From assembly GCF_000004825.1 (NCBI RefSeq), contig NW_008805076.1, positions 558,001 to 622,000 on the forward strand: a DNA stretch of 64,000 nucleotides, written 5' to 3'. Positions within the stretch are counted from its first letter, which is position 1; the number at the start of each line of letters is the position of its first letter. This stretch comes from Heterostelium album PN500 (lineage: Eukaryota > Evosea > Eumycetozoa > Acytosteliales > Acytosteliaceae). Below are positions 4,395-47,949 of the stretch, piece by piece. The notes beneath the pieces were generated by a model. That model did no database searches. It saw only the letters and a list, made by a program, of their open reading frames with translations, and was not told the DNA's origin. A program made the position numbers and the translations under genes.

Positions 4395-4505
4395 TATTAT
4401 TTTGGATAGTCGAACATTTACATTTTATAATTATTTTAAAAATTCTATCTAATTCAACATATTAAGACCAGTTTTGATTACTTTATTACTCATTTCATTT
4501 TAATA

Positions 4506-6647
4506 ATGTCAGATAAACAAAAACTGAGGGAAATAGACAAAAAATTAGTAACCAAAGATTGGGGTGCTAAATTTACAACAGATTATAATGGTAAACCAGA
4601 TTCTCAATCGGTCTGTGTCATTTGTAAAGAAACAATTTCGTGTACACATAAAGGAAATATTAGAAGGCATTTACAATCTGATGGGTGCGAGAAAGCAGGA
4701 GAGAGAGGTACTGGTGACACAGACTATGATAAAGATAAGGTTGATGACGCACTCGTCGATGTTATCGTCAACTGCAACCTCCCAATTAGCCTTGCCGATA
4801 ACATTTGGTTTGATAGGTTTCTAAGTTTCTTTCATTATACATCCCCTTCGGCAAAGGTCCTGAAACAAAAGATAATGGATAGGAGTCAATCAATGGAAAA
4901 ACAAATCAAGAGTTTTATTAATACTGTGGATCATGTATCTGTAACAATGGACTCGTGGACCAATACTGCACAAGATAACTTCACATCATTTAATGCTCAC
5001 ACTCTTGACAAAGATTTCAACTTTATATCACTTCTATTGTCTCCTAATGTACAACACACGAAATCGAATGTTGAAAACACAGCAATTTCAGTACTAGGTG
5101 CTAATGGATGGAATATTAAAAACAAGATAGTTTCAATTACAACTAATAATGCAGATAACATCTGCACTTCAATGAAAAGCTATCTAAAGGATTCCACTAT
5201 CCAACATACAAGGTAACTATTTACATGAGGTTAATCTATTGTATTATAATCTATAATTCTAAGAAAATTTAATAAACTAGATGCATGTCTCATACACTTC
5301 AACTGGTAGTAACAGATTCAATTAGTCTGGACGACAGAAAGACTTCAGAGTCGTTGAAACTTACTACTGAAAACACAATACAAACAGATGCTATAGAAGA
5401 CAGTTCAAGTTTAGACCAAGGTATTGATGCAGCTCAGTCTCAAGTTGAATATTCATCTCAATCCGATCCCAAGCAGAAGAAGGGCAAGAAGTACCGGCAC
5501 TAGTAATGTGAAGAATACAACATTGAAGACAAATACTGGTGCCAATAAGAGAAAGCTAGAGATGACAGAACACGATAATGTTGAAAGCACATTTACCTCT
5601 TCAACAAATACTATGGCAGAGTTCACATACGCGGTGTCAGATGAACCTTCCATTAATAATGTCCTACGCAAAGTCCGAACAATTTGCAGTAAGATTAAAT
5701 ATAGTCCTACACATGCAAACAAATTGAGGGATATGGTCAGAGCTGATGCACCACTCACCGCACAGGAAACAAAGTCGAAAAAGTATAAGGTACTAATCGG
5801 CTGTCCTACCCGCTGGACCTCTGTATATCAAATGGTTGTACGATACATCGAGCTAAAGGTCTATATCGATCAGATTTTATTGGATCAGTCAGAGTTCCAC
5901 ATGAGTGATAAAGAAATCGATATGCTTGATGACTACAGTGTTCTTCTTTACAAGTTTGAGTCATCAACAATGGAGTTAGCCACCCGTAACACATGCTCAA
6001 TTGAACGGTTAAGCGGCATCATCATCAACATGAAAGATTACTTTCATTGTGAAGATGTTAAAAATAGAAAGTTTACCACTGAAGGTCGTCGATTGAAAGA
6101 AGTTTTAGAAGTGTCTTTCAATAAGAGAATGGATCAGTATATCAATAATGATGAAGTTAAGGTGGCGTCATTCTTTAACCCATGCCATAAAGATTCATTC
6201 AACAAACTGGATAATGATGTTCAGCAAAAAGTCATTAAGCGTATTGAGCAGGAGATCAGTGAAATCAGTTCACAACATACTCCGTCGCCAATGAAAAAAC
6301 AAAAGAATGGTCCAGTTACATATCGTAGATTGTCATCCACAATTGCAAATACAGATCGCAAGATCAACGAAATCACCAAGTTTTTACAAGAGGTAAAAGA
6401 GAAAAGTGCAGATAATACCCCGGGTATTACCACTAATCTTTGGTGGAAAGAAAACCAGAGTAGATTCCCGAGACTAGCCAAACTTGCAAGACGATATCTG
6501 TGTGTCTCAGCAACCACTTTACCGTCAGAGAGCATCCTCTCAAGTGCTGGTAATATCTTTGACGATAAAAGGACTACAATGACGCATGAACTCTTCACAA
6601 GTCTTTTTTTCCAATACTGTAATAAAGACATCAATTTAAATTTCTAA
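4506..6647 (+). pseudogene. hAT-family transposase, copy 1 (frameshifted, with one intron)
   Basis: Starts at ATG 4506. A BED-type zinc finger (VCVICKE ... GNIRRHLQSDGC) opens the protein. The first hAT catalytic block is VTMDSWTN. An intron at 5213-5280 (68 bp, GTAACT..CTAG) joins T-R to C-M-S-H-T-L-Q-L, the hAT block equivalent to RCxxHTLxL. The frame then shifts once between about 5424 and 5503 and remains open to 6647. The C-terminal dimerisation block is present: NLWWKEN, PRLAKLARRYLCVSATTLPSES and a KR at the end of the motif. Because of the frameshift it is called a pseudogene, although one indel could be a sequence error. No convincing terminal inverted repeats or 8-bp duplication were found. 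It sits about 110 bp from the mariner end, so the two elements are adjacent rather than nested. Confidence 0.85.
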
Positions 6648-23983: not shown

Positions 23984-24127
23984 ACATGAAGGGCAGGATG
24001 CGCGCATATTTACAGTTAAAAAAAAAAAATCCAATAACAAAAATAAAGATAGCTAGATCAAATAGATTAGCGTTCGATTTAAAAAAAAAAAAAAAACCTC
24101 ATCTTTAAAGTTGATACTAAATAGTTA

Positions 24128-24941
24128 TCATATCGATTTGTTAAATTTAATTTCGATGTTTGAAATGTTGTTTAACTTTGATTGAAATTTATGATTGTGA
24201 TAATTAATTAACAATAAAATGATTGAATCTATATTATCAATATTATCTTTATAATAGTTTATCATATTATTATTGTTATTATGTTGATTAAAGATAGTTT
24301 TATTGTTATTATCGATAAATTCAATGATTGTTTGTGATGATTGAATACTTTTAATCATTGATTCTATTGAATATTGAACTGTAATATCATCATCATTGCC
24401 AATATATTCTAAACTACTATCATTATCATTATTTGCTTGTTGTTGTTGTTGTTGTTGATTATAATGATGTTGATAAAGATCGACAATGTTGATAATCGAT
24501 TCAATTGATCAAGATGTTGATTGATTTCATCTCTTAATTTATCGATAACATTAATGATTGGTTTCTTTAGTTTATGTTCTTCGACAATTAAATATTGATG
24601 AAGTTGTTGAAAGTGATTGCTGATTGTGTCTATGTTTTGTGAGAGTGATTCAATTTCATGAGATGAACTTTTAATCTTTATCCATAAACTATCGATATGT
24701 GTTTGAAGATAATTATCTTTATTGCTATTATTATTACTGATGTTATCTTTATTAATATTACTACTATCTTTATTTATTTTATTTAAAAGTGATTTGATTC
24801 ATCTGCATGATCACAGTGGTGGTGGTGCATGTGACTTTGTATGATCATTGGCACATCGATAACAAAATAATTGATTGCACATTAAACATATATATTCAAA
24901 CACCTTTTTATGTTCTGAACATTCTAAATCAATGAAAATAC

Positions 24942-25006
<65 letters not shown>

Positions 25007-25287: not shown

Positions 25288-25605
25288 CTAAGGGGATGTG
25301 GTATTATTTTTAATATCCTCATCGGCTTTTTGTTTTGCAAGCTCAGCTTGTTTTCTGGCCTCTTCCATTTGTTTCATTGCCTCTGCCAGTTGAGCACTTG
25401 CTTGATCATTTGTGGAATTCGATTGATTTGCTTGATTGTTTGCTTGAGCCATCGCTGCATTCGCTTGATCGATTGCTGCTTGGTTGCCACCTGGATTCAC
25501 TGGTGGATCTATTTTTATATCTCCTCCGATGTTTGGAGTTTGATTAATCATTTTCTCAAGATCTTCTCTCGATGGTCTTGGTTGGTTTGTTGGTCCATTC
25601 ATCAT
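25288..25605 (-). CDS. Small Ala/Gln-rich coiled-coil protein, unknown
   Basis: A 105-aa frame starting MMNGPTNQPRPSREDLEKM. The N-terminal third contains NIGGDIKIDPPVNPGG. The rest is rich in Ala, Gln, Asn and Lys with a helical repeat (AEAMKQMEEARKQAELAKQKA) that should form an amphipathic helix. No signal peptide or membrane segment. The first part recurs in copy B (37671-37752) truncated and with changes, so this version may be the only complete one in the window. I do not recognise the family; it could be a real small gene or a decaying one. Confidence 0.5.
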   Translation of the reverse strand: MMNGPTNQPRPSREDLEKMINQTPNIGGDIKIDPPVNPGGNQAAIDQANAAMAQANNQANQSNSTNDQASAQLAEAMKQMEEARKQAELAKQKADEDIKNNTTSP

Positions 25606-26517
25606 TTTCTTCTAATTTTATCTATTATATATATTGAAAGTTTGTTTTATAAAATAAAGAAAAATTTTATCTTTAAATACACAAACAGAAGACATTGAGG
25701 AATTCAAAAAAAAATAAATAATAAATTATTTTAAATAATATTTTATATTCGATGAATTTAGTTAACCACGTTGTAGGTGTTGTTACAAGTTCTTTAAAAA
25801 AAAATTAATGAACCTAGGAAATCAAATTATTCAGTGGAGATTTAGTTCTGAATAAATAGTTGAACAACAATACCTCAACACTTCTATTTTTTAGAAAGTA
25901 TTATTAAAATATTTGTAAAAACAACAAAATCGAAACAACTGGTTCTCAATAAAATCACCTTTTTTCCTCTTTTAGAAGTTGAAATGGGCATTTATAAAAA
26001 ATCAGAATTAATGGCAAAACAGGGTATGTAATTTAGAGAATAACTAACTACAAAAAAACAAAAAATCTAAAAAAAAGGAACCACGTGGTTCATTGGGTTT
26101 TTTTGGACTAGTTTGATCTTGTGATTAAAAAAAAAAATTGTACAAATCAGTGTCATTAGATTGTTGAATATTATTGACTTTATGACCAATCAATAGAATA
26201 TATTCATTATTATGAACTTTATCATTCATGAACTTTTCATTTTAATCTATAATAGAAAAATAGATATATAAAAAAATAGAAAATTCCGTGGTATTGTGAA
26301 AGTTAAACAATAATGTCTCTATGTGAAGTTTTTGATGTTAATTGAGTTTTGCAATGATCTTTATAAATATTTTCATTCCGAGATCAACGTGTCTCTAAAT
26401 ATCAAAATAAAATTATCATTTTTAAAAACTAAAGCTAAAAATTAAAATAAGATTATTGTTGTTTTTTTTTTTTTGTACAAATGGGTTGAGTATATATCGG
26501 ATCATAATATGTTTTAT
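25606..26517. other. Spacer within duplicated block A
   Basis: AT-rich, no gene seen. Several stretches match copy B (for example around AAATTCGAAACAAC-like and CCACGTGGTTCATTGGG words at 26080-26100 and 38280-38300), so this is inherited duplication spacer. CCACGTGG is an 8-bp palindrome kept in both copies, possibly a bZIP/bHLH-type site. Confidence 0.4.
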
Positions 26518-27279
26518 TCAAAAGCAAACACCAGCATTTGCGTTTATGTCTACGTCGTTGGTCTCTGTTAATAGTTGAATCCAAGAATTGGTTTTCAGAG
26601 AGAAGCAATGATTACCATACTTTGTACTGCCAATAAAGTAGATGGACGGATCGTTTTCGTTCGAGACGTAAATCAGTGGTCTTCTGGTGTCTGGATACTT
26701 TGGTATGGAAGGTGAGCGTAATGATGTAGTGCTTTTCGTTGGGATTGTTATCTTTAGGAAGTTACCATTGCTAACCAACAGATAGATACTATCGATACCA
26801 TCGAAACAACAGCCAATGGTCTTTCCAAACAACGGTAGTTCATTTATGTACATCTCCAACTTGTTGGTGGCACAATCGTATTGCAGTATCGATTTGAATT
26901 CACCAAATACTCCGTGACCCGATATAGTGAATCCACCGAGAAAATAAACCTTGCCATCCAAGTAGCAACTGAAAGCACCATGTCGCTGCTGATCCAAATC
27001 CAACAGTTTCTTGAATTCCTTTGTATCCAAATCGTACGAATCCAACGACAATATATTTCCTTTATCCGAACGACCACCCAATAAATATATAGTTTTATCA
27101 CCATCATAACAAGTTGAAACACATTTACTTCCCTGTTTTTGTAATAAACAAATTTAAAAGATTAGTTGTTATTTAGAGTTTAAATAATAATAATATAGTT
27201 ACAAACTTACTTGAATAATATCATTTCTCTTCAAAGGTTCACATGCAATATATTGCATTGTTTTCGGTGAGAAAATTGT
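26518..27279 (-). pseudogene. B-box/kelch gene, truncated copy A
   Basis: Exon 2 (26518-27132) is the same length as in the intact gene at 39031-40893 and differs by only a few residues (for example VFGEF for QFGEF). The intron (donor at 27210, acceptor at 27133-27134) and about the last 70 bases of exon 1 (27211-27279) follow. Homology to the intact gene ends abruptly after GAGAAAATTGT at 27279. The B-box, coiled-coil and first kelch repeats are therefore missing. The near-perfect exon 2 implies a young duplication or gene conversion. Confidence 0.88.
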
Positions 27280-27556
27280 CCAATCAAAAGTTAAATTTCT
27301 TTTTTTTTATTTTCTAATTAATGTAAACAATCTATGATTTATTTAAAAGGTAGTAGTTGTAGATTATTTGAAAGATGTAGTTTAGAAAGTAGATCTATTT
27401 TATATTCATCATATTCAACTGGTGGAGAAAGATAGCTCAACAAAGAGAGAGGTGAGATGTTACAGATGCAATGGTATTGGTCATATCAGTAAGAACTGTA
27501 CATCAGCGGGGGAGACGGTGAAAAGTTCGAAATGAATCGAGAATAAGGAGAGTTGC

Positions 27557-28177
27557 GTGGGGTTGTCGGAGGTGAAGGAAGTGGTGGAAGGTGAAAAAGA
27601 AAAGATAGAAGAAGAAATTTTAATGTTAGAAATAAATAATAATCATTTAATAATAGAATTAGAAATAAATAAAATAAAAAGAAAAATAATAATTGATACA
27701 GGCGCAACAAAATCATTCATAAACAATAAAAATATAAATAAAATAGATAAAATAAAAAATATAAAAAATAAAATAATAAAAATTCCATTAGAAGACAAAA
27801 ATAAAATAATAAATAAAGCCGTATCAGCAGAAATAATAATAAATAAAAAAACTTATAATGTAGAATTAAACATAATAGATATAGAAGAAGATATCGAGAT
27901 CATTTTCGGATCAGATATACTTCAAGAGTTAGAGATGAAGATAGAAATAAGAAATAAGAAGTGGTATTTAGAGTTCAATGGAGTAGAGATAGTAGTAGTA
28001 AATCAGAAAGTAGATAAAGAAATAGTAATAGATAGTAAAGTAAATAATAATAATGAGAAAGAGATATTAGAGGAAGTAAGAGAGTTAATAGTTAAAGAAG
28101 ATTTAGAGGGATTGGAGAAGAGGATGGTGGAAATCTTTAGAGAAACCGCCAAACTTCAAAATCATGGAAAGAGATAA
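27557..28177 (+). pseudogene. Chromovirus aspartic protease region
   Basis: Contains the retropepsin motif IIIDTGATKSFIN, where DTGA is the catalytic Asp. Very A-rich codon use (ATA, AAA, AAT), unlike nearby host genes. There is no ATG at the beginning of this frame, so it was translated as part of a polyprotein. Overlaps the next frame by 14 bases. Confidence 0.8.
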
Positions 28178-29581
28178 TGACATCATTCATAAGATTGTGT
28201 TGAAGAAAGATTCTGTGGTGAAGAAACAACATCAGTTCAGACGATCTTACAAGGAAGAGATGGATATACAGATGAAAGTAGACGAGTTAGAAGAGTTAGG
28301 AATAGTAGAGAAAGTACCAGAAGAGTTTTTAGATCAAGTAGTAGAATCACCAATATTTGCAGTATATAAGAATAATGTGTTTGATAGATTAGTAAATCAT
28401 TTTAAGAAGTTAAATGATGCGACAGTAGAATTAGAGTACAAGATTCCAGTTGTAGATGAAGTAATCAATAGTTTGAGAGGATGTAAATATTTTAGCATCG
28501 GAGACGTTGTAAAAGGTTACTTTCATGTGAAGATGGATTTGGAGTCAAGGAAATATACAGCATTCAGGACCCGTAAAGGCATTTACTGGTATTTACGTAT
28601 GGCTATGGGTTTGAATGGAGCACCAGCAAGATTCGCAGAGTTTATCGAAGAGAATTTTAGTGACATAGTAAAAAATTATTTCGATGATCTCATTAGTGGC
28701 GATGTGACGTTAGAAGAGAATGTAGTTAGAGTAATCAGAATGTTTTGGATTAGATGTAGAGAGAGACAAATATATTTAAGTAGAAAGAAGTTAAAGTTAT
28801 TTAGATTAGAGATAGAAATATTAGGTAGAACAATAAGAGAGAATATCATTAATAGTAGTAGTAAGAAGACAGAGATACTGGATAGAATGGAGTATCCAAC
28901 AACACCAAAACAAGTACAGCGAACTTTGGGATTTTTTAATTATTATCGAAAGTTTGTTGATAAGTTTGTTGAAAAGACCAAACACTTAGAGTTTTCAAGA
29001 CAGATTTCGAAATAAATGACGAAGCAAAGAGAGAATTCGATTTATTGCGAAAAGAGTTGAAAAATACAGTAGATCTAATGTTGCCGGATCCAACAAAGGA
29101 GTACTTTGTTTATACAGATGCAAGCGATATCGGTATAAGCGTGGTGATCTGTCAGAAAGATGAAAAAGGAGTGTTGAAACCAGTGTTGTTCAGTGGAAGA
29201 AGGCTGAAACCAGGAGAGCAGATCAAGTCGATTGGTGCACGTGAACTGTTGGCAATCAAATACTTTTTGAAGAAGCATTCAGATATTTTGTTAGGACCAA
29301 AGTTAAATATATACACAGATCATTTCAATCTCTTGTATTTGAAAGATCAAGCAATCTTGACAAAGGATCAGCTCAAGGCATTGGAGTTGTTGTCACAATT
29401 CAACTATGATATCAATCACATTGAAGGAAAGAACAACGTGGGAGCAGATGTGCTGTCTAGACTTCAGTGTTACCAGATACCATTGGATTTCAGTTACTTG
29501 GACGAGATTAAGAACAGTTATAAGTCAAGTAAGGATGTGGAATTGGTAAAGTTACGTCATAAGGAATCATGGAGAAAGTAA
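28164..29581 (+). pseudogene. Chromovirus reverse transcriptase and RNase H
   Basis: RT blocks in order: VVESPIFAVYK, YFSIGDVVKGYFHVKM, TAFRTRKGIYWYLRMAMG, LNGAPARF, and the catalytic YFDDLI (YxDD type). Then the thumb/connection LGRTI and RTLGFFNYYRKFV. The frame shifts near 28985-29000. RNase H follows with FVYTDASDIGIS, GARELLAIKYF, IYTDHFNLLYL and NVGADVLSRL, retaining the Asp and Glu positions. Confidence 0.85.
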
Positions 29582-29597
29582 TGGATTAATTTTTATC

Positions 29598-30652
29598 TTG
29601 GATAAGAATTTCAATGAAAGATTACTTTTGGTAGATGAAAAGCATATTAAAGAAGTAATAACGGAAGCTCATGGAAGTACTTACTGTGGTCATGGAGATA
29701 CTTTAAGAACGTGGGTTAGGTTGAAGTCGAATTACTATGCTAGAAATCTATATGACAATGTGAAGGATTACTGTGAGCATTGTGTGGAATGTAAACAGAA
29801 TCGAGTGGAATTGAAAAGGAAGGTTAACATACATCCTTTGGAGATAGCAGAAGGAGTTGGTGTGGATATTTCGATGGATTTCATGGAATTACCAAAGAGC
29901 GTTAATGGTTATGATTATGTTTTGGTAGTGGTGGATCGATTTTCGAAATATACAACTATCATTCCAACTACGAAGGAAATCACAGCATTGGGTACAGCAA
30001 AGTTAATTCATCAACAAGTGTTCTCATTGTTTGGATTACCGTTATCAATTGTAAGCGATCGTGATACTCGCTTTACAAGTGAAGTGTGGTTAGAACTCTT
30101 TAAGAAAGTAGGATCAAAACTAAGAATGACCGTACCGAGACATCCGCAATCAGATGGCCAGAGTGAACGCACGAACAGGAGAATCAGATCTATGCTAGGA
30201 AGCTATCGTTGGAGTTCAAAGACAAGTGGGATGAAGAGATTAAGAATATTCAATTCGCGATCAATTCAACTTATAATTCAACAATCAAACTATCACCTTT
30301 CGAAGTAGTGCTGGGATACATTCCTGTATCGCCAATTAACATGTTTAGAAACAATAATACATCGAATAGAGAATGGATCAGAGAGATGGTCAAAGACAGT
30401 TTGTTGGATAAACAATTAGATATGTTGGAAGCAGATGGAACCATCAAGAACAAACCGACTTATCAGATTGGAGATTGGATGTTTGTCAAAGATGAATTTA
30501 TCAATTTAGAAGTTGATTGGAACACAAACACAGGATCAATTAATAATAAGAATCGTGGACCGTTCAAGATCACAAAGATATTTAATAATGGTATCAACGT
30601 AGAACTAGAATTGGATTACACAACAAAGAGACACAAAAGTTTTCAATATTAA
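29598..30652 (+). pseudogene. Chromovirus integrase
   Basis: HHCC zinc-binding region (HGSTYCGHGDT ... CEHCVECKQNR), then the catalytic core: VDISMDF (first Asp), LSIVSDRDTRFTS (second Asp), PQSDGQSERTNR (Glu). A frameshift at about 30200-30300 moves the remainder (FEVVLGYIPVSPINMF) to another frame. Confidence 0.85.
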
Positions 30653-30925: not shown

Positions 30926-31146
30926 AATCTTTAAGTAGAGCAGAGTGTTAAATAGAACACTTTAAAATATATAAAATAATCAAAATTAAATCAATTAAAA
31001 TATGTATTTATCAAATAAACAAACAAATAAAGAACTTTGTTATATTTTATCATCATTAGCATTACTTATAGTATTTAATTAGTTATTCTTAAAGTTATTA
31101 TATATATAGAAACGTTTTTACTGTTAATCACCCCCTTTTTAAAATT

Positions 31147-32539
31147 TCTACACTACCGCTCGAAAGAATCAAGTTGCTCATGTTCGCTGATGACACTGGT
31201 GCTTTCACCAGGAACTTGGATGAACTGCATAGAGTCATCCACTGGTTTAACCTGTTCAAGCTATCCACCACTGCGGATGTTAACTCTAGTAAATCGGTTA
31301 TCATTCCGCTCGGTAACACTTCCACTGCCAACCTTCCGTTCCCTGTGTCCACAGTGCCTGAAAGATACTTAGGTGTCAATTTCAACCCGGATGGTCACTG
31401 CTCCAAACTGGCAAGTATAATCAATCTCATTAAAGCTAACCTAGCTCTGTATAAGTATAAAGTTTATACTCTTAGAGCTAAATCAACTATCATTAAATCT
31501 TATGTGCTTCGCATGCTCTTCTACCACTTCTATCTTGAATCGCCCACACCTGATCAAATCAAGCTTGTCAACAGACTTATCGCTTGGTTCTTCACCATTG
31601 CACCTGATGCCAAAGCAAAGTTCACCGCTTTGATGTCTTTGGACAGGTCTTGCTTTCACTGGAATGATGGTCTGAATTTGTGGGATCTATCTCTTCGTTC
31701 TGCTGCTTATAAGATATGGGTCTTTAATAGATTCCTGTTGTTAAGTAGAAGCAACTCATTTGGTTACTTCAAAACTTGGTCATGCTTGATTGTGCCAAAA
31801 AATTTACTAATCCAACTTCTTCACCATCCTTCAAACTGTTCCATTCGTCTTGGATGGATTTTAGAAACAATCACTTCTCCAGAGTCATACCGGGCAATCC
31901 CATCCTTGCTGATGATGGTAGTCTCCTTACACTGAAGGTCAACTAACCATCCAGATTGGTCACTCTTTGGTTCTCCAATCTCAGTTTCTGCATATATCCA
32001 AGGTCAAAGCGCCTATGCTACGTAACAGCATATTCCGGCTGTACTCTCACACCTTCCCCATCAACCACAAGCGCACTGGTCATGTCTGTGAGTTCTGTGG
32101 TGACACCTTCACTGAACTCTGCAACCCACATGAGCATTTCTTCTTCAAATGCAGGAATGTAGTTTCTCAGCAGTTCCTTTCCTTTATCAAACACATATAC
32201 CACAAGTACTGTAACTATAGACTTCGCAATTGGAAGCACTCGTGCATCAAGTTCGACGGTCCTATTCGTACTACTGTCCACTTCACCCACCTTACTGCTG
32301 CTATCGTACATTCGTTATGGCAGGCGTTGTCCTGTGAAATGTTTGGTGATGGTACCCATTACAAGCTGGAAAATACCGTCAAAAGAGCAGTCACCCATTA
32401 CACCAAATTAATCGATGCCAATTACCACAAGCTTAACTTCACAATCGCTAATTCTATCTCCCAAGGAATCACTGTCGATTGCTCTAGGTATTCGATTAGG
32501 ATCTATTCTATCCTAATAACAAATCGATTTGTTTTGTAG
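31147..32539 (+). mobile_element. 5'-truncated non-LTR (L1/TRE-like) retrotransposon ORF2 fragment
   Basis: Begins inside the reverse transcriptase: KLLMFADDTGAF gives the catalytic FADDT, followed by NSSKSVIIPLG, ERYLGVNF, and a thumb-like KSTIIKSYVLRMLFYHFYL. After a frameshift at about 31935-31967 comes a zinc-binding motif CEFCGDTFTELCNPHEHFFFKC, the C-terminal zinc finger found in L1-clade ORF2 proteins. Base composition is distinctly more C-rich than the flanks. The 5' edge lies between about 31125 and 31150 and the 3' edge somewhere after 32540; no poly-A tail or target duplication was identified. 5' truncation is the normal fate of non-LTR insertions. Confidence 0.82.
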
Positions 32540-36000: not shown

Positions 36001-36525
36001 CTTAAACAAGATGCCAAGATGATTCAATATCTCCCATATGGATCTATCGCAGTCTATGGATTATTGCAAACATCGATAGAGTCACTGGTTGCCAAGATCC
36101 ATACTCTCCTTGAATCCATGGAAACGTCAAAGACCATCCCAATCTACCAGAGTTGCAAGCACCAATATGAACATCTCTTGTTTGACAAAGTGAAGCGAAA
36201 TTCACTACAGACAGAGTTTGACGTACAAATCGATTACTCACAGACCAACGTCATGATTAGAGGAAATACCAAGAATGTCGAGCACTTTGTCGATCAGCTC
36301 AAAAACAGAGTGCAGGATATCTCCTGCGAGAAATTCGAAGTCTTACCATTCCTTACGAAATATTTGCCAAAGACTTACCACCAAGATTTTTTTAAAAGCC
36401 TCCAGGAGCAGTATGATGTTTATGTTGTTCTAAACTTTCCTGTCTACTCTGTTTTTGGTTCTAAATCATTAAATTGGGAAGAGATCGGCCGAAAAATTTC
36501 AGTTGTTATGATCTTTCATCAGTGA
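33087..36525 (+). CDS. Large protein of unknown function, 3' end truncated and replaced
   Basis: Three exons: 33087-33356, 33448-34605 and 34669-36525, giving 1094 aa in frame. The N-terminal 400 residues appear to hold repeated alpha-beta units with hydrophobic strands (PLVVLATNLPL, KLVLNGLILNS, TILFSSSHAL), reminiscent of RRM-like folds. A long Asn tract follows (about 34110-34200). The remainder has repeated short strand-helix units with phrases such as IHMYGPIAEINSISKVL, VVAFGNSDSIEKMFKFVEKIL and VMIRGNTKNVEHFVDQL, like degenerate KH-type modules (PARP14-like proteins have similar chains). I assign no function. The last few codons lie in antisense Rab-pseudogene sequence (from about 36510), so the original C-terminus is missing. 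Confidence 0.75.
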
Positions 36526-37659
36526 CATCATATACAATAAATATAGTAGCTGCATCTTTAAAGTATGAAGTTGTTATAGATCTAAATCTATGGTAGCAGG
36601 AAGTATCCCAAATTTGTAGTTTATATTCGAGTGATTCATGCTCGAACGTTCTAATTACATAATTATGACTGATTGTTGGATAAATGAGTGGATTGAATTT
36701 ATCATCTGTGAATCTAGACAACAATACAGACTATTCAATTGAATTAGTTATTATAATATTCAATTAGAAACTTTTCTATATTTAGTTTTATATTTACCTT
36801 TCCAACTCTTTAATCACCAATAAGTAACAATTTAAAATGATAATGGCGTTTTCCATTAGCGATGTTACTTGATAATTATCAAGTAATTGCAAAAGGTTGA
36901 AGTTGATTTAATTGAAAAAATTATGGATTGTTTTAATAAATATCATCATTATGCCAATAAATTCTAAACTACTATCATTATCATGATTTGCTTCTTGTTG
37001 TTGTTGTTGTTGTTGTTGTTGATTATATTGATGTTGATAAAGATCTACAATGTTGATAAATCGATTCAATTGATCAAGATATCTATGAATTAAGAGATGA
37101 AATCAATCAACATCTTGATCATTAATGATAACTCATCGATAACATTAATGATTGGTTTCTTTAGTTTATGTTCTTCGACAATTAAATATTGATGAAGTTG
37201 TTGAAGTGATTGCTTGTTGGAATCGTAGTTCCAAGATACCAATCAACCGACTACTGCTAACCGATGAATGAACACAATGTATATAAGCGCAAACAAAATA
37301 CCATCATCTTTAAACACATAAACTATTTATTTATTATAACATCATTTCTATACTACTACACTATGTCGTTACTACCACAGTTTAACGATGTCTCTAACAT
37401 TGCTGATTGTGTCTATGTTTTGTGATTCAATTTCATGAGATGAACTTTTAATCTTTAAAGATAAATTATTTAAAAGTGATTTGATTTCATCTGCATGATC
37501 ACAGTGGTGTGGTGCATGTGACTTTGTATGATCATTGGCACATCTATAACAAAATAATTGATTGCACTTTAAACATATATATTCAAACACCTTTTTATGT
37601 TCTGAACTTTCTAAATCAATGAAAATGCCATTATTATTATTATTATTCTTGTTATCCAT
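36510..37659 (-). pseudogene. B-box/Rab gene relic, copy B (with GTPase remnant)
   Basis: Starts MDNKN at 37659, with B-box blocks LESSEHKKVFEYICLKC and CYRCANDHTKSH. It is then broken by a solo LTR (37215-37399), a small inversion (37082-37120) and deletions. The GTPase part is recognisable near 36800-36860, where GGTGATTAAAGAGTTGGAAAG reads G-D-stop-R-V-G-K, a stop codon inside the P-loop. It continues at 36724-36510: LSRFTDDKF, LQIWDTSCYHRFRS, IFIVYDVTDE. Compared with the intact gene at 46199 the switch-II Gly is Cys. It proves that the B-box/Rab fusion predates the duplication. Confidence 0.85.
37215..37399. mobile_element. Solo LTR (185 bp) with 5-bp target duplication TTGCT
   Basis: The sequence interrupts the B-box/Rab relic exactly where copies A and the 46199 gene read GTGATTGCTGATTGTG. 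It begins TGTTGGA and ends TCTAACA (inverted TG..CA ends) and is flanked by TTGCT on both sides (37210-37214, 37400-37404). It contains a TATATAAG box at about 37280-37287. A TTGGAA/TTCCAA inverted repeat lies at its start. Size, ends and duplication are those of a solo LTR from a Ty1/copia or Ty3/gypsy element. It shows no similarity I can see to the chromovirus at 27411. Confidence 0.85.
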
Positions 37660-37670
37660 TTAAATATTTA

Positions 37671-37752
37671 TATCTCCTCCGATGTTTGGAATTTGACCCT
37701 TTATCTCAAGATCTTCTCTCGATGGTCTTGGTTGGTTTCCTGGTACATTCAT
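37671..37752 (-). pseudogene. Remnant of the small Ala/Gln-rich gene in copy B
   Basis: Reads MNVPGNQPRPSREDLE then diverges, matching the start of the gene at 25288-25605. It is cut after NIGGDI by a deletion that joins it to the upstream region of the B-box relic. Confidence 0.7.
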
Positions 37753-38396
37753 CCTTTTCTTCTTATTTATCTATTAAAAATATTGAAAGTTTGTTATATA
37801 AAATAACGTAAAATTTTATCTTTAAATACCCAAGCAGAAGACATTTGAGGAATTCAAAAAAAATAAATATTAAATTATTGCAAATAATATTATATATTCG
37901 ATGAATTTAGTTAACCACGTTGTTAGTTTTGTTACAAGTTCTTCAAAATAAATTAAAGAACCTAGGAAATCAATTTAAAATTCAGTAGAGATTTAGTTCT
38001 GAATAAATAGTTGAACTCAATAATACCTCAACACTTCTATTTCTAGAAAGTATTATTATAATATTTTGTAACTTTTTAAAAACAACAAAATCGAAACAAC
38101 TGAGGCTCAATGATATCACCTTTATTCCTCTTTTAGAAGTTGAAATGGGCATTTATAAATGATCATATATTGTTATGTGCTATTTCATTTTTCAGGTTGG
38201 TTTTTGTGTTTGCACAGCTTTTTTGAATATACTATTTTTTCAAAAAGCACAAAAAAAACAAAAAATCTAAAAAAATTACTGAACCACGTGGTTCATTGGG
38301 TTTTTTTTTACTTTTGGCAATTGTATGAATATTTTAAAAAGTAATAAATTAACAAATTTTATTTAATTGTATTAAATACTTAGTTCACCTTCTACC

Positions 38397-38738
38397 TCAG
38401 CCTCTTCTTCTTCCTCCTCTTCCTCTAGTTGCATTATTGTTTAATACCTCTTCTTCTTCTTGATGATCTATATGTTGATGAGGAGGTTGTTGAAGAGGTT
38501 GTTGAGGAGGTTGTTGAAGAGGTTGTTGAAGAGGTTGCTGTGGTACAGCTTGACCGGTTAATTGTGGGAGAAACTGAGCCATCATCGCCATGATTGCTTG
38601 TTGTGGATTTGCAGGACTCACCTCATTGGTTTTTGTTTTGAGAACACCAAATCCGTTTATAAAACAGTCATGTTCTACTCTTCTAGGATCTGAGTAAATG
38701 TCATGATTGTAGAATATTATTGATTTTTCGTTGACTAT
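38397..38738 (-). other. Gln/Pro-rich reading frame ending RGRGGRRRG, status uncertain
   Basis: A frame open from 38738 to the stop at 38397 without a convincing start. It reads ...FYNHDIYSDPRRVEHDCFIN..., then a PQQPLQQPLQQPPQQ low-complexity run, then acidic QEEEEV and a basic RGRGGRRRG tail. The upstream part is better conserved in style than chance AT-rich frames. This stretch is missing from copy A. It could be an exon of a decayed gene or a retro-inserted fragment; I do not recognise it. Confidence 0.3.
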
Positions 38739-39030
38739 TCAATTGAATATCTTCATTATTATTCACTTTATCATTCATGAAACTTTTCATTTTAACTTAT
38801 CTATAATAGAAAAATAGATATTTTCTATTGTTTAATGTCTCTATGCGAAGTTTTAAATGTTAATTGAGTTTTGCAATTATCTTATATAAATATTTTCATT
38901 CCAGGATCAATGTGTCTCTAAAATAACAAAATAAAAATATCATTTTTTAAAACTAAAGCTAAATCAAATTAAGATTATTGTTTTTTTTTTTTTTGTAGGT
39001 TGGTATATATCGGATCATAATAAGTTTTAT

Positions 39031-40893
39031 TCAAAAGCAAACACCAGCATTTGCGTTTATGTCTACGTCGTTAGTCTCTGTTAATAGTTGAATCCAAGAA
39101 TTGGTTTTCAGAGAGAAGCAATGATTACCATACTTTGTACTGCCAATAAAGTAGATGGACGGATCGTTTTCGTTCGAGACGTAAATCAGTGGTCTTCTGG
39201 TGTCTGGATACTTTGGTATGGAAGGTGAGCGTAATGATGTAGTGCTTTTCGTTGGGATTGTTATCTTTAGGAAGTTACCATTGCTAACCAACAGATAGAT
39301 ACTATCGATACCATCGAAACAACAGCCAATGGTCTTTCCAAACAACGGTAGTTCATTTATGTACATCTCCAACTTGTTGGTGGCACAATCGTATTGCAGT
39401 ATCGATTTGAATTCACCAAACTGTCCGTGACCCGATATAGTGAATCCACCGAGAAAATAAACCTTGCCATCCAAGTAGCAACTGAAAGCACCGTGTCGCT
39501 GCTGATCCAAATCCAACAGCTTCTTGAATTCCTTTGTATCCAAATCGTACGAATCCAACGACAATATATTTCCTTTATCCGAACGACCACCCAATAAATA
39601 TATAGTTTTATCACCATCATAACAAGTTGAAACACATTTACTTCCCTGTTTTTGTAATAAACAAATTTAAAAGATTAGTTGTTATTTAGTGTTTAAATAA
39701 TATAGTTACAAACTTACTTGAATAATATCATTTCTCTTCAAAGGTTCACATGCAATATATTGCATTGTTTTCGGTGAGAAAATTGTGTAGGTAGCAATGC
39801 TTTTGTCTCCGCCGAATATGTAGATGTTGTTTCTGGCGTAGACAACAGAGTTGATAGCTTGATCTCGTTTGGCTGCTTCGGTGACACACTTTACCCACTT
39901 TTTGCTCTCCAGGTTCATTGTGAATGCACCATTGCCACCCAGTGTAAATAGTTCGGTTTTCGCTACTCTCGCTGTATCTTTCAGCCTGTACAGTGTTGTC
40001 AGCTTCTTTTTGATTTCATTGACCTCCCTGCTATCGAATGATACCTCGTAGTTGATCGGTTTCGGTGCACTCTCGATCTTGAATGACTGCTTGTACTCCT
40101 TGAACTGCGAATTCAGCGATGCTTCTCTCTCCATCTCGTCCAACTTGAACAACGTCTTTTTGTTCTTCTTTAAAAATGATTCCAAACTATCGCTCTCTTG
40201 AATTTTACTTTGAACCGTATTGATATTCGTCAGATAATCGTTATTATAATAGCTATCCATTTGATCTTCTTCATCTTCATCTTCATCTCCTTCATCTTTC
40301 TCGTTATTATTATTAGTATTATTATTATTGTTATCTTGTTGTTCTATTTGTTCTTGTTCTAATGTTTCTTCATGTTTACGTTTGTTTCCTAGTAACACTG
40401 GTGTTGTTGTGTTTGAATCTGGTGTGGTGTCTGTAGCTGCAGCTGCACCGTCCAACTCTGACGACTCTGTTGACTTTGACTTGTTGCTGTTTCTCTTGTT
40501 GATATTCAATATGAGGTTGTTGATTGTTTTCAACTCTTTTATTGCCGAGAGTATCTGATCTTCGGATTTCTCACGTTCTACTTTCAGTGGTTGTTTGTTG
40601 TTCTCCTCTTCGACACGCAGCAGTTCGTGCAAGTCACGGTAATGCCACTCGATGATCTTATTGTTTTTCTCGAGGTGATCCAACATCTTGCTATTCTCTT
40701 TGATTACATCCCAGAGGTGTACCATTCTCTTGCCGTACTGTCCTTCTTCATTCTTGAGTACTTCGTCAAACGATTGCTTCTCGTGTTCACGATGCATAAA
40801 GTCGTTACAACACACCTCACAAATGAGATCACCACATTTCTTACAATAGAAATCCAGACTCATACCATGAATTATACAATTTTCATTATTCAT
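39031..40893 (-). CDS. B-box zinc finger / kelch-repeat protein
   Basis: Two exons, 40893-39718 and 39645-39031, giving 596 aa. The N-terminal B-box is CIIHGMSLDFYCKKCGDLIC-EVCCNDFMHREHE (Cys/His spacing of a B-box 2 finger). A helical coiled-coil region follows (about 60-140), then an Asn/Asp/Glu low-complexity segment (about 190-220). Kelch-type beta-propeller blades fill the C-terminal half: IYIFGG, IYLLGG and VYFLGG are the GG signatures. The layout is like TRIM/kelch proteins without a RING, so a substrate adaptor or scaffold is plausible. No RING means ligase activity is not supported. Copy A at 26518 is a truncated duplicate. It diverges from the ankyrin gene at 41364. Confidence 0.88.
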
Positions 40894-41363
40894 TATAATT
40901 TATTCTATATATGTATATGTTTATATTATCTATTCTAATTAAGTTATATGCAAAAATATTTAAAATTTCAAATTTTTTTTATCCGGATAAAACTATTCTT
41001 TTTCCCTCCTTTTTTCCTAAATTAGTCTATTGAGATATTTATATAGTTACATACTAAATTAAATATATATTATTTTTTTAAAAATCTCTGACTTGTCTAA
41101 AACTATTTTAAACAAAAAACAAAGTTTATTTATAATTAAAGTTTATTTTTAATATTCCAAAGATCTTGATTAGTAATCAAACTTACATTTTCATTAAATA
41201 AATAATTTAAATAAAAAAAGAAATTATTGATTAAAAAATAAAAATGACAAAAGATTATTATTGATCAAGCAAATATCTGAAAAAAAAACGTTTTGGATTT
41301 ACAATGTTTCATTAAATGTCACACGATTTTTTTTTTGTTAGAATGATCATAAATAATAAATAA
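40894..41363. other. Shared upstream region of two divergent genes
   Basis: 470 bp, very AT-rich with T and A runs. It must contain the promoters of the kelch gene (minus) and the ankyrin-like gene (plus). No specific element recognised. Confidence 0.5.
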
Positions 41364-43530: not shown

Positions 43531-45988
43531 ATGGATAATTTATTACTATTATCTAAATTAAATAGTATAAAAGATAAATCAGGTGAGGATTTGAAGCAAA
43601 ACACACTTTATAGTGATTTTAAACAGTTTTTTACAAAAAAGAGCGAAAAAAACAAAAATATTTGTTTCTTTTGTAAAAAGAGTGCACAGCAGATACAGCC
43701 CAGCATTGCAGAGAGCACTTGAATACAAAAAGCTGCAAATTGGCACAACAATCACTATTACCAAATAAACTCACAACAAACTCAGACTATTTATGTTGTA
43801 GATATATAGTAATGTCAAATATTCCATTTTCAACTTTGGAGAACACAGAGTTCAAAGAGTTTCTTCAGTCGTTAAACTATTCACCTCCCTCAAGGTATAA
43901 GTTTAAGGAAACGTATCTTCCTGGCCTCATGAAAGATCTTACGAATGTGATGAAGTATCAATTAGATCGTGCAGATTGGGTGGCAATAACAACAGATGGT
44001 TGGACTAACAATCAGAATGACAAGTTCACCACAGTCACAGCGCACTTCTTGGATAAAGATTTTCAATATGTGTCTTTTGTATTGGACTTTATTGCATCGG
44101 AACTTTCGGATACATCAGAGAATCTCTCAAACCAACTAGTGAAATGCCTTGAGTCATGGAATATTAAAGACAAGGTAATAGCTGCGGTCACTGATAATGC
44201 TAGGAATGTCACTAAAGCTATAAACATTTCCAACATTAAGTCCTATAGATGCTTATCTCATACTTTACAACTTATTGTTAGTGACTGTATAGATATTGGC
44301 AAACCACCTACGGAAGATGAAATTCAACTGTCGGTTTCTGCCAATGCGGAAAGTGATCACGCAGTGGAGCAAGACACCACACAACCACAATCAACAGTCA
44401 ATAGCTCAAATGGATTGTCGGTTTTGTCTCATGAAACTTCGACTACCACCAGTACAAATAAAAAAAAAAAACTATCCACAACTACAAATCTGTCAAGAAA
44501 GAAACAAAAGTCATCTCAACCACCAACAAAAGATCTCATGGAAATGGCCACCACCGACCAGGATATCAGTATTCAAGCTCAACTATCAATTAAAACAATA
44601 AATCCTGAGTCATCCCTTAGTGTCAGGAATGTTTTAAGAAAAGTAAGAATTGTTGTTTATAAGATTAAATTTAGTAAGCCACATAGCACGAATTTAAAGA
44701 ACATTCTGAGTGCAGTCCCATCTAATAGCAATAGCAATAACAATAGCAATAACAATAACAATAACAATAACAATAACAATAACAATAACAATAACAATAA
44801 CAATAGCAATAGTGATAGCAATAGCAATTCGCGTCCGAAGCAAAGTCTAGGTTTTCGTTTAAAATACTACTCTCCAACCAGATGGTGTTCTCTTTACAAT
44901 ATGGTTCAAAAATTCATGAAGTATTATAAAGCTATTGAATTGTTAGCTGAACCCGCTTTTGCTTTTTCAAAAGATGAACTGGATGTAAGTATACACACTC
45001 ACGGTGTAATCATTTTGAAAATATTAATAAATTAATAAACCTTTTTTAATAGGTACTAGACGATTATATACTATTACTAGAGCCATTTGAATCAGCCACC
45101 ATGTACCTGGCACCAACAAATAGGATCACTATCGACAGTGTACTTCCAATGCTTGACACCATTCCACTTGCGTTACAGAGTAAGATAGCAATGCTAAAGA
45201 CATCTCAAGGTAAAACATTAATGGAGCAATTGCAATCTTCTCTCAAAAAAAGAAAGGATGAGTTGCTTGCTTCAGTACCTGATTTAGTCTTGCCGTTATT
45301 ATTCTCTCCATTATACAAGTCCCATTTAAAGATCATATGGGACAATACCGTAACAGTTGCCCCAGAGGTTCAAAATCCAGAGACCAAACGCCGTGCTGGC
45401 CGACCAACAAAAACACCATCTATATCTACTGTACCGATCAAAGCTACCGATGATAACAAGATTGAACTAACATTAACCGATAAACAATTGAACATATTTA
45501 TCAATGATATCAAGTCTAAAGTAACAGTCAATGAAACATTACCAAATACAACACCTACTACAACAACATCACCCGCTAAAGTCACACCTCAAATAGATTT
45601 ATCACCAGTGTCATTTAATCCATTTTATAGATATAGTAAAGATCCACAACCAATAGAGCTTAATGTAGATATACTCAAGAAGCAATTAATGGATTTCCAC
45701 AATTATCAGTATGTAACTGAAGAAGAAGAGAGACTAGGCAAATATTCTAATCCTGCAATTTTCTGGTCGCAAAATAATCACCTATTTCCCTATGTTGCTC
45801 AACTTGCTCGCAAATATATGTGTGTTCCTGCTTCTTCTGTGCCTTCTGAATCTGTATTCTCTAAAGCTAATTATATATTTTCCGAAAGAAGACAATCAAT
45901 GCTAAGTAGTACATTAAGAGATTGTGTCTTATTGTATTGCAACAAATCTTTATTTACAAATGCCAACAACAATAATAACAACAAATAA
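43531..45988 (+). CDS. hAT-family transposase, copy 2 (one N-terminal frameshift)
   Basis: Starts at ATG 43531. The BED zinc finger (ICFFCKK ... HCREHLNTKSC) is split by a single-base frameshift near 43680. After that the frame is open to 44984, an intron spans 44985-45052 (68 bp, GTAAGT..ATAG), and exon 2 runs 45053-45988. hAT blocks: VAITTDGWTNN (catalytic Asp), YRCLSHTLQLIVSD, KYYSPTRWCSLYNMV, and the dimerisation block IFWSQNNHLFPYVAQLARKY then PASSVPSESVFSKA. A long Asn/Ser tract (about 44720-44830) has expanded inside the core. Apart from the N-terminal indel it is complete, so it may be recently active. Reliable terminal inverted repeats were not found; AGTGAGTT-like words near 43370 and 46125 are suggestive only. 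Confidence 0.85.
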
Positions 45989-46198: not shown

Positions 46199-47949
46199 AT
46201 GAATAAAAATAATAATAATAATAGTGTAACAATAGATTTAGAATGTTCAGAACATAAAAAGGTGTTTGAATATATATGTTTAAAGTGCAATCAATTATTT
46301 TGTTATAGATGTGCCAATGATCATACAAAGTCACATGAAAAACACCACTGTGATCATGCAGATGATATCAAATCACTTTTAAATAAAATAAATAAAGATA
46401 GTAGTAAAAATAATAAAGATAACATCAGTAATAATAATAGCAATAAAGACAATTATATTCAAACACATATCGATAGTTTATGGATAAAGATTAAAAGTTC
46501 ATCTCATGAAATTGAATCACTCTCACAAAACATAGACACAATCAGCAATCACTTTCAACAACTTCATCAATATCTAATTGTCGAAGAACATAAACTAAAG
46601 AAACCAATCATTAATGTTATCGATGAATTAAGAGATGAAATCAATCAACATCTTGATCAATTGAAATCGATTATCAACATTGTCGATCTTTATCAACATC
46701 ATTATAATCAACAACAACAACAACAACAAGCAAATAATGATAATAGTAGTTTAGAATATATTGGCAATGATGATGATATTACAGTTCAATATTCAATAGA
46801 ATCAATGATTAAAAGTATTCAATCATCACAAACAATCATTGAATTTATCGATAATAACAATAAAACTATCTTTAATCAACATAATAACAATAATAATATG
46901 ATAAACTATTATAAGGATAATATTGATAATATAGATTCAATCATTTTATTGTTAATTAATAATCACAATCATAAATTTCAATCAAAGTTAAACAACATTT
47001 CAAACAATAATACATCGAAAATAATTATAACAAATCGATATTATAACTATTTATTATCAACAAACTTTAAAGAAGATGAAATCAATTTATTCAATCAATT
47101 AATACAACAATCAATAAATGTATCATTTAAAACTCAAGAATCAACTTCAACCTATATTTTTAAAAAAGATAAAATCAAAGATCCAAAACTATGTATCCCT
47201 CGGTCGTTAGATGGACAACTCTATTATTTTTTTAAATTTGTAATTGTTGGTGATTCAAATGTTGGAAAGGTAAATACAAAACTAAATATAGAATATTTTA
47301 TAATGATAATCGTAGCTAATTCAATTGAATAGTCTGTAATGTTGTCTAGATTGACAAATGATAAATTCGATCGATCCATTCAACAAACAATCGGTGTAAA
47401 TTTCGAAAGTTTAGCAATCGAGCATGAATCACTCAAATATAAACTACAAATATGGGATACTTCTGGCCTCCTTAAATTTAGAACTATTACATCCTCATAC
47501 TTTAAAGATACAGCTACTATTTTTATTATATATGATGTCACTAACGAAACATCTTTTAAAAGTAAGAGTATTAAAAGTTTATTGAAATCTATCGAAATTT
47601 ACTAATTAAAAATAACAACTTCAAAACTATAGATGTAAGAGAATGGATAACATTTGTAAACAAATATAATGAAGATGCTTTCAAAATTATTGTTGGCAAT
47701 AAAAGTGATCATCCAAAAAGATTGATTCAATATCAACAAGGCAGACAATTGGCTGACGAATTAGGATTAGATTTTTTTGAAACATCAGCAAAGACTGGTC
47801 AAGGTCTTAATGATGCATTCATCAGTATCGTTGATAGATTGAAACACTCTATTCTTGATCAGAATGGTGACTACGTTTATGTCAACGGTCTAAAGAAAAC
47901 TAACAACAATAACAATAAAGGTGGATTTCTATCTTTTCTTAAAAGATAA
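46199..47949 (+). CDS. B-box zinc finger fused to a Rab-like small GTPase
   Basis: Three exons, 46199-47269, 47333-47561 and 47633-47949, giving 538 aa with both junctions in frame. After a short Asn run comes a B-box (LECSEHKKVFEYICLKC, CYRCANDHTKSH, HHCDHADD), then about 270 residues of Asn/Gln-rich coiled-coil (SSSHEIESLSQNIDTISNHF, KKPIINVIDELRDEI). From about residue 345 follows a complete GTPase domain: P-loop GDSNVGKS (351-358), switch I Thr376 (QQTIGVNF), switch II WDTSGLLKF (398-406), NKSD (455-458), ETSAK (482-486). The catalytic Gln of WDTAGQE is Leu403, the change that locks Ras/Rab in the GTP state. The C-terminus is FLSFLKR, with no Cys for prenylation. The two-domain fusion is backed by the P-loop exon being continuous with the B-box exon, and by pseudogene copy B. 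Confidence 0.9.

What the first reader, a model, noticed from the sequence alone, without database searches (positions are those of the whole stretch)
46199..47949. B-box zinc finger fused to a Rab-like GTPase with Leu at the catalytic Gln and no prenylation site
The sequence shows a B-box, a long helical/Asn-rich linker and a full set of G boxes in one spliced frame of 538 aa. Leu403 replaces the Gln of WDTAGQ, a substitution established to block GTP hydrolysis in Ras and Rab proteins. The protein ends FLSFLKR, so it lacks the Cys needed for membrane anchoring of normal Rabs. Inference: a permanently GTP-bound, non-lipidated GTPase that uses the B-box/coiled coil for assembly and acts as a scaffold rather than a switch. 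I know of no characterised protein with this arrangement.
Basis: partly seen in the sequence, partly recalled or inferred. Interest (0 to 1): 0.82.

Follow-up and report, generated by a model that had tools for sequence, protein, structure and literature searches.

The report
TRIM-like family with Rab-derived variable end
A social amoeba has a small family of proteins that join a TRIM-like zinc-finger and coiled-coil front to a Rab GTPase end which has mostly lost its catalytic glutamine and its lipid anchor and, in most copies compared, differs between copies chiefly around the surface where Rabs meet their partners.

Summary
The gene at 46199-47949 in Heterostelium album encodes one 538-residue protein: B-box, long helical linker, Rab-like GTPase, Leu403 at the catalytic Gln, no C-terminal Cys. 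The fusion lies inside exon 1. It is not unique: the genome holds at least six intact B-box-Rab genes plus broken copies, with the same two introns and, in five of the six, a tail GG/NG-x-x-SF-x-KR in place of prenyl cysteines. The GTPase is of the Rab1/Rab8 kind. Leu is peculiar to this copy: eight copies carry L, Q, H, deleted/F, T, N, M, K; nucleotide-binding motifs are mostly kept. Close paralogs are nearly identical in B-box, linker and GTPase C-terminal half but differ in and around switch I/II. A larger sibling group (same B-box-linker, kelch end) shows strong signs of positive selection in its C-terminal domain; the same test on the Rab copies is unstable. Best reading: a RING-less, TRIM-like recognition family in which the C-terminal domain is a Rab used as a binding or bait surface rather than a switch. 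Function is inferred; nothing is tested at the bench.

The parts
46199..47269 (+). exon 1: residues 1-357 = B-box, helical/Asn-rich linker, GTPase beta-1 and P-loop up to GK, one uninterrupted frame
   Evidence: P0001 identical here; homologous single exon in five other intact copies
46244..46357 (+). B-box zinc finger, residues 16-53
   Evidence: weak Pfam hit; ligands invariant in A1; Foldseek B-box hits to TRIM5alpha
46439..46732 (+). predicted single long helix, residues 81-178, TRIM-like coiled coil
   Evidence: AlphaFold models, block pLDDT 65-80 in one and 45-65 in the other
47270..47332 (+). intron 1, phase 0, after GK of the P-loop
   Evidence: same place in seven other copies and in an ordinary Rab at C10:2063k
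47333..47561 (+). exon 2: switch I, switch II, to SFK
47357..47419 (+). switch I zone, residues 366-386, variable between copies
47453..47512 (+). switch II zone, residues 398-417, variable between copies
47468..47470 (+). Leu403 codon (CTC) at the catalytic Gln position
47562..47632 (+). intron 2, phase 1
47633..47949 (+). exon 3: alpha-3 to C-terminus with NKSD and ETSAK, plus stop
47920..47946 (+). C-terminal tail GGFLSFLKR in place of prenylation cysteines
   Evidence: like tail in 7 of 8 copies aligned, not in C7
36510..37650 (-). broken B-box-Rab relative with frame breaks; exon-2 remnant reads WDTSCYHRF
24099..24963 (-). exon-1 relic, 95% nucleotide identity to 46202-47076, several frame breaks, no GTPase part among the tblastn hits
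39031..40899 (-). sibling B-box-linker-kelch-like gene (two ORFs, 397 and 211 aa)

Best explanation
A RING-less, TRIM-like protein. Shown: a B-box and helical linker joined in one frame to a Rab-type domain; at least six intact genes of this design in the genome; nucleotide-binding motifs mostly kept, catalytic Gln missing in 7 of 8 copies and C-terminal Cys in 8 of 8; three close pairs differ most in and around switch I/II. Inferred: all descend from one fusion with a Rab1/Rab8-type gene; the B-box and long helix self-assemble as in TRIMs; the Rab domain binds GTP but hydrolyses it slowly or not at all and stays off membranes unless its hydrophobic-basic tail attaches it; its switch face is the recognition surface, diversified copy by copy, so that the protein works as a partner-specific receptor, adaptor or bait for things that bind Rab switch regions, a part played by the kelch end in the sibling group.
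For: Family and shared design. One fusion: the eight copies form a clade, support 0.957; introns at the same places in all eight and in an ordinary Rab at C10:2063k with WDTAGQ and a GGCEC tail. Nearest solved relatives Rab1A/Rab3/Sec4 by sequence and Rab8a by fold. Gln position: L,Q,H,del/F,T,N,M,K against Gln in 17 and Thr in 2 of 19 non-fusion Ras-superfamily loci. Focal divergence: in residues 313-437 dN 0.193/0.094/0.237 against 0.023/0.017/0.054 elsewhere for P2/P3, C25a/b, C9a/b; differences fall in the switch zones more than expected in 5 of 6 pairs (17 of 40 against 9.6, 15 of 21 against 5.2, 20 of 40 against 10.1, 22 of 60 against 14.9, 25 of 64 against 15.2). In C25a/b the introns differ at 2 of 163 bases while the switch zones hold about 17 nonsynonymous and 1 synonymous change. 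Purifying selection on the N-terminus, omega 0.22. Sibling B-box-kelch genes: C-terminal domain M1a vs M2a 2dlnL 162 and 33; N-terminus omega 0.39 and 0.24. TRIM-like N-terminal fold: top Foldseek hits are TRIM5alpha B-box-coiled-coil, E 0.02-0.04.
Against: No excess in the sixth pair, C7/C25a (10 of 44 against 9.6). The site-model test on the Rab copies is unstable: 2dlnL 2.5 for six intact copies over 313-538, 16.9 for eight over 345-538, 0.4 for the trio win/P2/P3 over 313-538, whose N-terminal part instead gave 6.2 (p 0.045), and 5.3 for C7/C25a/C25b; then 10.0, 0, 4.8, 0 and 10.0 for five sets of copies over 345-510. Even in C25a/b the switch-zone excess over omega=1 has p 0.11, and it is 0.91 and 0.89 in P2/P3 and C9a/b. 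dS is also about three-fold higher in the divergent stretch (0.204 vs 0.060, 0.052 vs 0.017, 0.224 vs 0.070), so gene conversion of the flanks explains part of the pattern. Residues 418-437, outside the switches, are as divergent in P2/P3 and C9a/b (dN 0.243, 0.394). The circular-shift control is weaker than the shuffle (23/163, 4/167, 6/167, 9/165, 13/164, 90/156). P2 still has Gln. C9a and C9b share a frame break. The N-terminal model is poor (mean pLDDT 49.8) and no Foldseek hit reaches E 0.001. No ordinary Rab paralog pair was run as a control. The N-terminal part of one kelch cluster also gave a positive M2a result (2dlnL 20).
Confidence: 0.5

Rival explanations
1. One reading: Leu403 locks this one protein in the GTP state and it serves as a constitutive scaffold.
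For: Q-to-L is the GTP-locking change used in Rabs (Rab8a Q67L, Rab1A Q70L, Rab3B Q81L entries among the hits); P-loop, TIGVNF, NKSD and ETSAK intact; a metagenomic Rab-B-box protein (P0075) also has WDTAGL.
Against: Of eight copies only this one has Leu; relatives of the same design have Q, H, T, N, M, K or a deletion; a scaffold needs no variable switch surface.
Confidence: 0.2
2. Relaxed constraint: after losing membrane anchor and catalysis the GTPase domain is drifting, and gene conversion among tandem copies hides drift elsewhere.
For: Raised dS in the divergent stretch and omega near 1 there (0.95, 1.81, 1.06); unstable M2a results; several broken copies.
Against: omega=1 rejected for residues 313-538 of six intact copies (0.43, 2dlnL 42); P-loop GK in 8 of 8, NKxD in 7 of 8, SAK in 6 of 8 and the tail in 7 of 8 are kept; in C25a/b the switch-zone changes are nearly all nonsynonymous.
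Confidence: 0.27
3. Two neighbouring genes or a gene-model error.
For: No transcript seen; the annotated model has a different C-terminus.
Against: B-box, linker and P-loop share one uninterrupted exon in six intact copies; both introns lie within the GTPase.
Confidence: 0.02

Closest known systems
TRIM23 / ARD1
   Same: B-box and coiled coil N-terminal to a Ras-superfamily GTPase domain in one protein (PMC8358228, passages)
   Different: TRIM23 has a RING, two B-boxes and an Arf domain and arose within animals; here no RING, one B-box, a Rab1/8-type domain, several genes, Gln mostly lost
TRIM5alpha B-box-coiled-coil
   Same: best fold match of the N-terminal model; variable C-terminal recognition domain on a conserved front (general TRIM knowledge, recalled)
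   Different: no RING, C-terminal Rab or kelch instead of SPRY; the match is weak
Dictyostelid B-box multigene family (OG5_126643, 'Zinc finger, B-box domain and FNIP repeat-containing protein', 206 members in P. pallidum; PMC4334915, table passage)
   Same: large lineage-expanded B-box gene family in the same group of amoebae
   Different: whether the genes studied here belong to that orthogroup was not tested; here the end is a Rab or kelch
Rab1/Rab8 GTPases
   Same: fold, motifs and intron positions
   Different: fused, no prenyl Cys, Gln lost in most copies, divergent switches
Metagenomic Rab-B-box proteins P0075, P0089, P0099
   Same: Rab and B-box in one protein
   Different: reverse order, different linker; organism not given; no description found

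Membership tests
Rab GTPase | Ras fold with P-loop, switch Thr, NKxD and SAK motifs | tested here: met
   window copy:
Rab GTPase | catalytic Gln in WDTAGQ | tested here: not met
   Leu403; missing in 7 of 8 copies
Rab GTPase | C-terminal prenylation cysteines | tested here: not met
   no Cys in the last 20 residues of 8 of 8 copies
Rab GTPase | groups with Rabs in a tree | tested here: met
   family (0.957) beside the loci that group with human Rab1A (joint node 0.905); FastTree, 28 sequences, no Rab8 reference included
TRIM / RBCC proteins | RING finger | tested here: not met
   only 15 residues precede the B-box; no RING among Pfam hits
TRIM / RBCC proteins | B-box | tested here: met
   ligands invariant, Foldseek; Pfam below cut-off
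TRIM / RBCC proteins | long antiparallel coiled-coil dimer | tested here: inconclusive
   98-residue helix predicted; dimerisation not tested
TRIM23 | Arf-type GTPase domain | tested here: not met
   Ras 154.9 bits against Arf 53.1 bits; Rab1/Rab8 nearest
GTP-locked GTPase | failure to hydrolyse GTP | not testable with these tools
   needs biochemistry
integrated-decoy receptor | domain resembles a pathogen target and varies at the contact surface | tested here: inconclusive
   focal divergence in three close pairs; selection test on the Rab copies unstable

The most novel reading that the evidence does not exclude
The Rab domains are integrated decoys: amoebal TRIM-like sensors that display an unanchored, non-cycling Rab so that bacterial or other proteins which grip or modify Rab switch regions bind it and trigger assembly of the B-box platform. 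The variable positions lie where such proteins act; window S412 and Y413 align with Rab1b S76 and Y77, sites of phosphocholination and AMPylation, and position 412 reads S,S,V,L,L,F,S,N in the eight copies.
Probability: 0.22. Interest if true: 0.88.

Novelty: new variant of a known kind. Interest (0 to 1): 0.6.

Why it matters
If right, amoebae have built TRIM-like recognition proteins with a Rab where sibling genes carry a kelch end: another route, besides TRIM23's Arf, to a GTPase at the end of a B-box protein, and possibly a host trafficking protein used as bait. It also offers a natural set of Rab variants in which the catalytic Gln is replaced in seven different ways.

Tried and rejected
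Single rare gene: rejected, it is a family. Annotated third intron and its C-terminus: rejected on length and on paralog tails. Two-gene reading: rejected. Leu as the family's key feature: rejected. Relatives in other dictyostelids: the three protein searches listed, among named hits, B-box-linker relatives from H. album only (lists capped at 120 of 134 and 120 of 127 in the first two). The linker search returned 10 proteins although the genome search lists 89 matching stretches, so it is insensitive and says nothing about absence elsewhere; no other dictyostelid genome was searched. Site-selection test on the Rab copies: unstable, so not used as proof. Kelch codon models used 4 and 8 of the 20 ORFs found in the 20 loci; eight pairs were profiled, seven of the 25 listed and one other. 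dS was similar in both halves or higher in the front in six of these eight and higher in the kelch half in two. Of three kelch pairs pooled for N/S counts, one showed no excess (68/28 vs 39/16); pooled p 0.007. The codon-model and spliced-alignment scripts are my own and were not checked against published programs. The switch zones were delimited after I had seen the alignments. Papers: PMC7228754 start of abstract and passages; PMC8923023 and PMC5758549 start of abstract and passages; PMC8358228 and PMC4334915 likewise; all others only in search listings. Searches for a prior description of B-box-Rab proteins; no title listed describes one.

Full report
What is there. The window is C15:558001-622000 of the own genome held as G000; the protein at 46199-47949 is 100% identical over its match to P0001 of Heterostelium album PN500, a dictyostelid. 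The gene has three exons and two short GT-AG introns and encodes 538 residues. Residues 346-503 are a Ras-family domain (1.8e-45) whose nearest solved relatives are Rab1A, Rab3 and Sec4 by sequence and Rab8a by fold. Residues 16-53 have the ligand pattern of a B-box; Pfam scores it below its cut-off, but the ligands are invariant in the five members aligned. Residues 81-178 are predicted as one helix. Leu403 stands at the catalytic Gln, and there is no Cys in the last 20 residues.

One protein, not two. Exon 1 runs from the start codon to the GK of the P-loop without interruption, here and in five other intact copies. Both introns fall inside the GTPase. The public annotation adds a third intron of about 25 nt and so loses the end GGFLSFLKR; seven of eight copies have a tail of this kind, so the annotation is probably wrong there. 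As a DNA pattern the tail has 20 matches in the genome against 3 for the reversed control; 8 of the 20 lie at C-termini or remnants of this family.

A family. Searching the genome with the protein and modelling the hits gave intact genes at C15:836.5k (P2), C15:839.1k (P3), C7:165.2k (C7, without the tail), C25:433.5k (C25a) and C25:437.2k (C25b) besides the window gene. C9a and C9b share a frame break in exon 1, and no B-box was found in C9a. Further broken pieces lie in the window at 36510-37650 and 24099-24963 and near C15:846k and C9:1810k. All eight modelled copies have the two introns. In a tree of 28 GTPase domains the eight form one clade (0.957) beside the loci that group with human Rab1A. 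Of the 19 non-fusion loci, C10:2063k has both introns at homologous places and phases (printed 21/0 and 97/1, against 20/0 and 96/1 for the window gene, which has one residue fewer upstream) and a prenylation-type tail GGCEC; C27:1191k and, C3:2269k share the first intron and have a phase-1 intron near the second (86, 91). One fusion of a B-box-linker exon to such a Rab, followed by duplication, explains this best.

State of the GTPase. Copies read, at the Gln position, L, Q, H, deleted or F, T, N, M, K; of 19 non-fusion loci 17 have Gln and two have Thr. P-loop GK is kept in eight of eight, though C7 has K for the following Ser/Thr; NKxD in seven (P2: TKSD); SAK in six (C9a and C9b: SAV); P3 has lost the Gly and C9a the Asp of DxxG. 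So most copies could bind nucleotide, and most should hydrolyse it poorly; that is inference from known Rab and Ras mutants.

Where copies differ. P2/P3 and C25a/b are tandem pairs; C9a/b lie on one contig. B-box, linker and GTPase C-terminal half are nearly identical within the tandem pairs, and so are their introns (2 of 143 aligned bases for P2/P3, with 12 gap columns, and 2 of 163 for C25a/b). Residues 313-437 diverge in the three pairs, and within the GTPase the differences gather in the switch zones in five of six pairs by shuffling, less clearly by circular shift, and not in C7/C25a; residues 418-437 are also divergent in P2/P3 and C9a/b. dS rises too, so gene conversion of the flanks is part of the story. 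Selection tests on the Rab copies gave 2dlnL from 0 to 16.9 depending on the copies and columns used: inconclusive. C25a/b is the cleanest case (about 17 nonsynonymous, 1 synonymous in the switch zones), but even there the excess over omega = 1 has p = 0.11.

The sibling group. Dozens of further stretches match the B-box and linker only; five siblings scanned all have a kelch motif over the Pfam cut-off. In two clusters the kelch domain, far more than the front, shows evidence of positively selected sites (2dlnL 162 and 33, about 7% of sites, omega 10-13; front omega 0.39 and 0.24). Recombination can inflate such tests, and the front of one cluster also scored (2dlnL 20). This is the pattern of a recognition family with a conserved platform and a variable end, and it frames the Rab copies.

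How it most likely works. The front assembles; the end recognises. In the Rab branch the end is a Rab that no longer needs to cycle or sit on a membrane, and whose effector-facing surface differs from copy to copy. The match of window S412/Y413 to Rab1b S76/Y77, sites modified by bacterial enzymes (PMC7228754 passages; entry title 3nkv), is suggestive only; site 412 had posterior 0.99 for selection with all eight copies but 0.43 with the six intact ones.

Comparison. TRIM23 (RING, two B-boxes, coiled coil, Arf; PMC8358228 passages) is the nearest known architecture; this differs in lacking the RING, in the kind of GTPase and in forming a multigene family. D. discoideum is described as having a single TRIM, a TRIM37 orthologue (PMC5758549 passage), so RING-less B-box genes are outside that count. 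Large dictyostelid B-box families are known (PMC4334915). The survey of dictyostelid GTPases (PMC8923023, passages) has no 'B-box' in its main text and names BBOX once, among domains found with GEFs or GAPs; it gives GTPase architectures as over 90% conserved; its supplements were not seen. Three metagenomic proteins join Rab and B-box in the opposite order, so such fusions have probably arisen more than once.

Noticed in passing
window 26151-27279 and 38699-39786; 25511-26004 and 37664-38165: Segmental duplication (92% and 87% identity) carrying a kelch-end ORF beside broken B-box-Rab pieces.
   Followed up: partly
window 43677-45988 and 4440-6647: Transposase-like ORFs (hAT-like, by eye), one ending about 200 bases upstream of the gene studied.
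   Followed up: no
window 27536-30308 and 31093-32539: Retrotransposon-like ORFs (by eye), observed only.
   Followed up: no
L053, L054, L055, L064 and the C5 cluster (L045, L047-L050, L060, L061): B-box-kelch genes with site-model evidence for diversifying selection in the kelch domain; worth a study of their own.
   Followed up: partly
P0075, P0089, P0099: Metagenomic Rab-then-B-box proteins, one with WDTAGL.
   Followed up: partly
P0001 C-terminus: Public annotation uses a third intron of about 25 nt that removes the conserved tail, and names the protein 'ADP-ribosylation factor-related' although the domain is Rab-like.
   Followed up: yes
L033 and L034 (C9:1804-1818k): Two copies share a frame break in exon 1 yet keep an open GTPase frame and tail.
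   Followed up: partly
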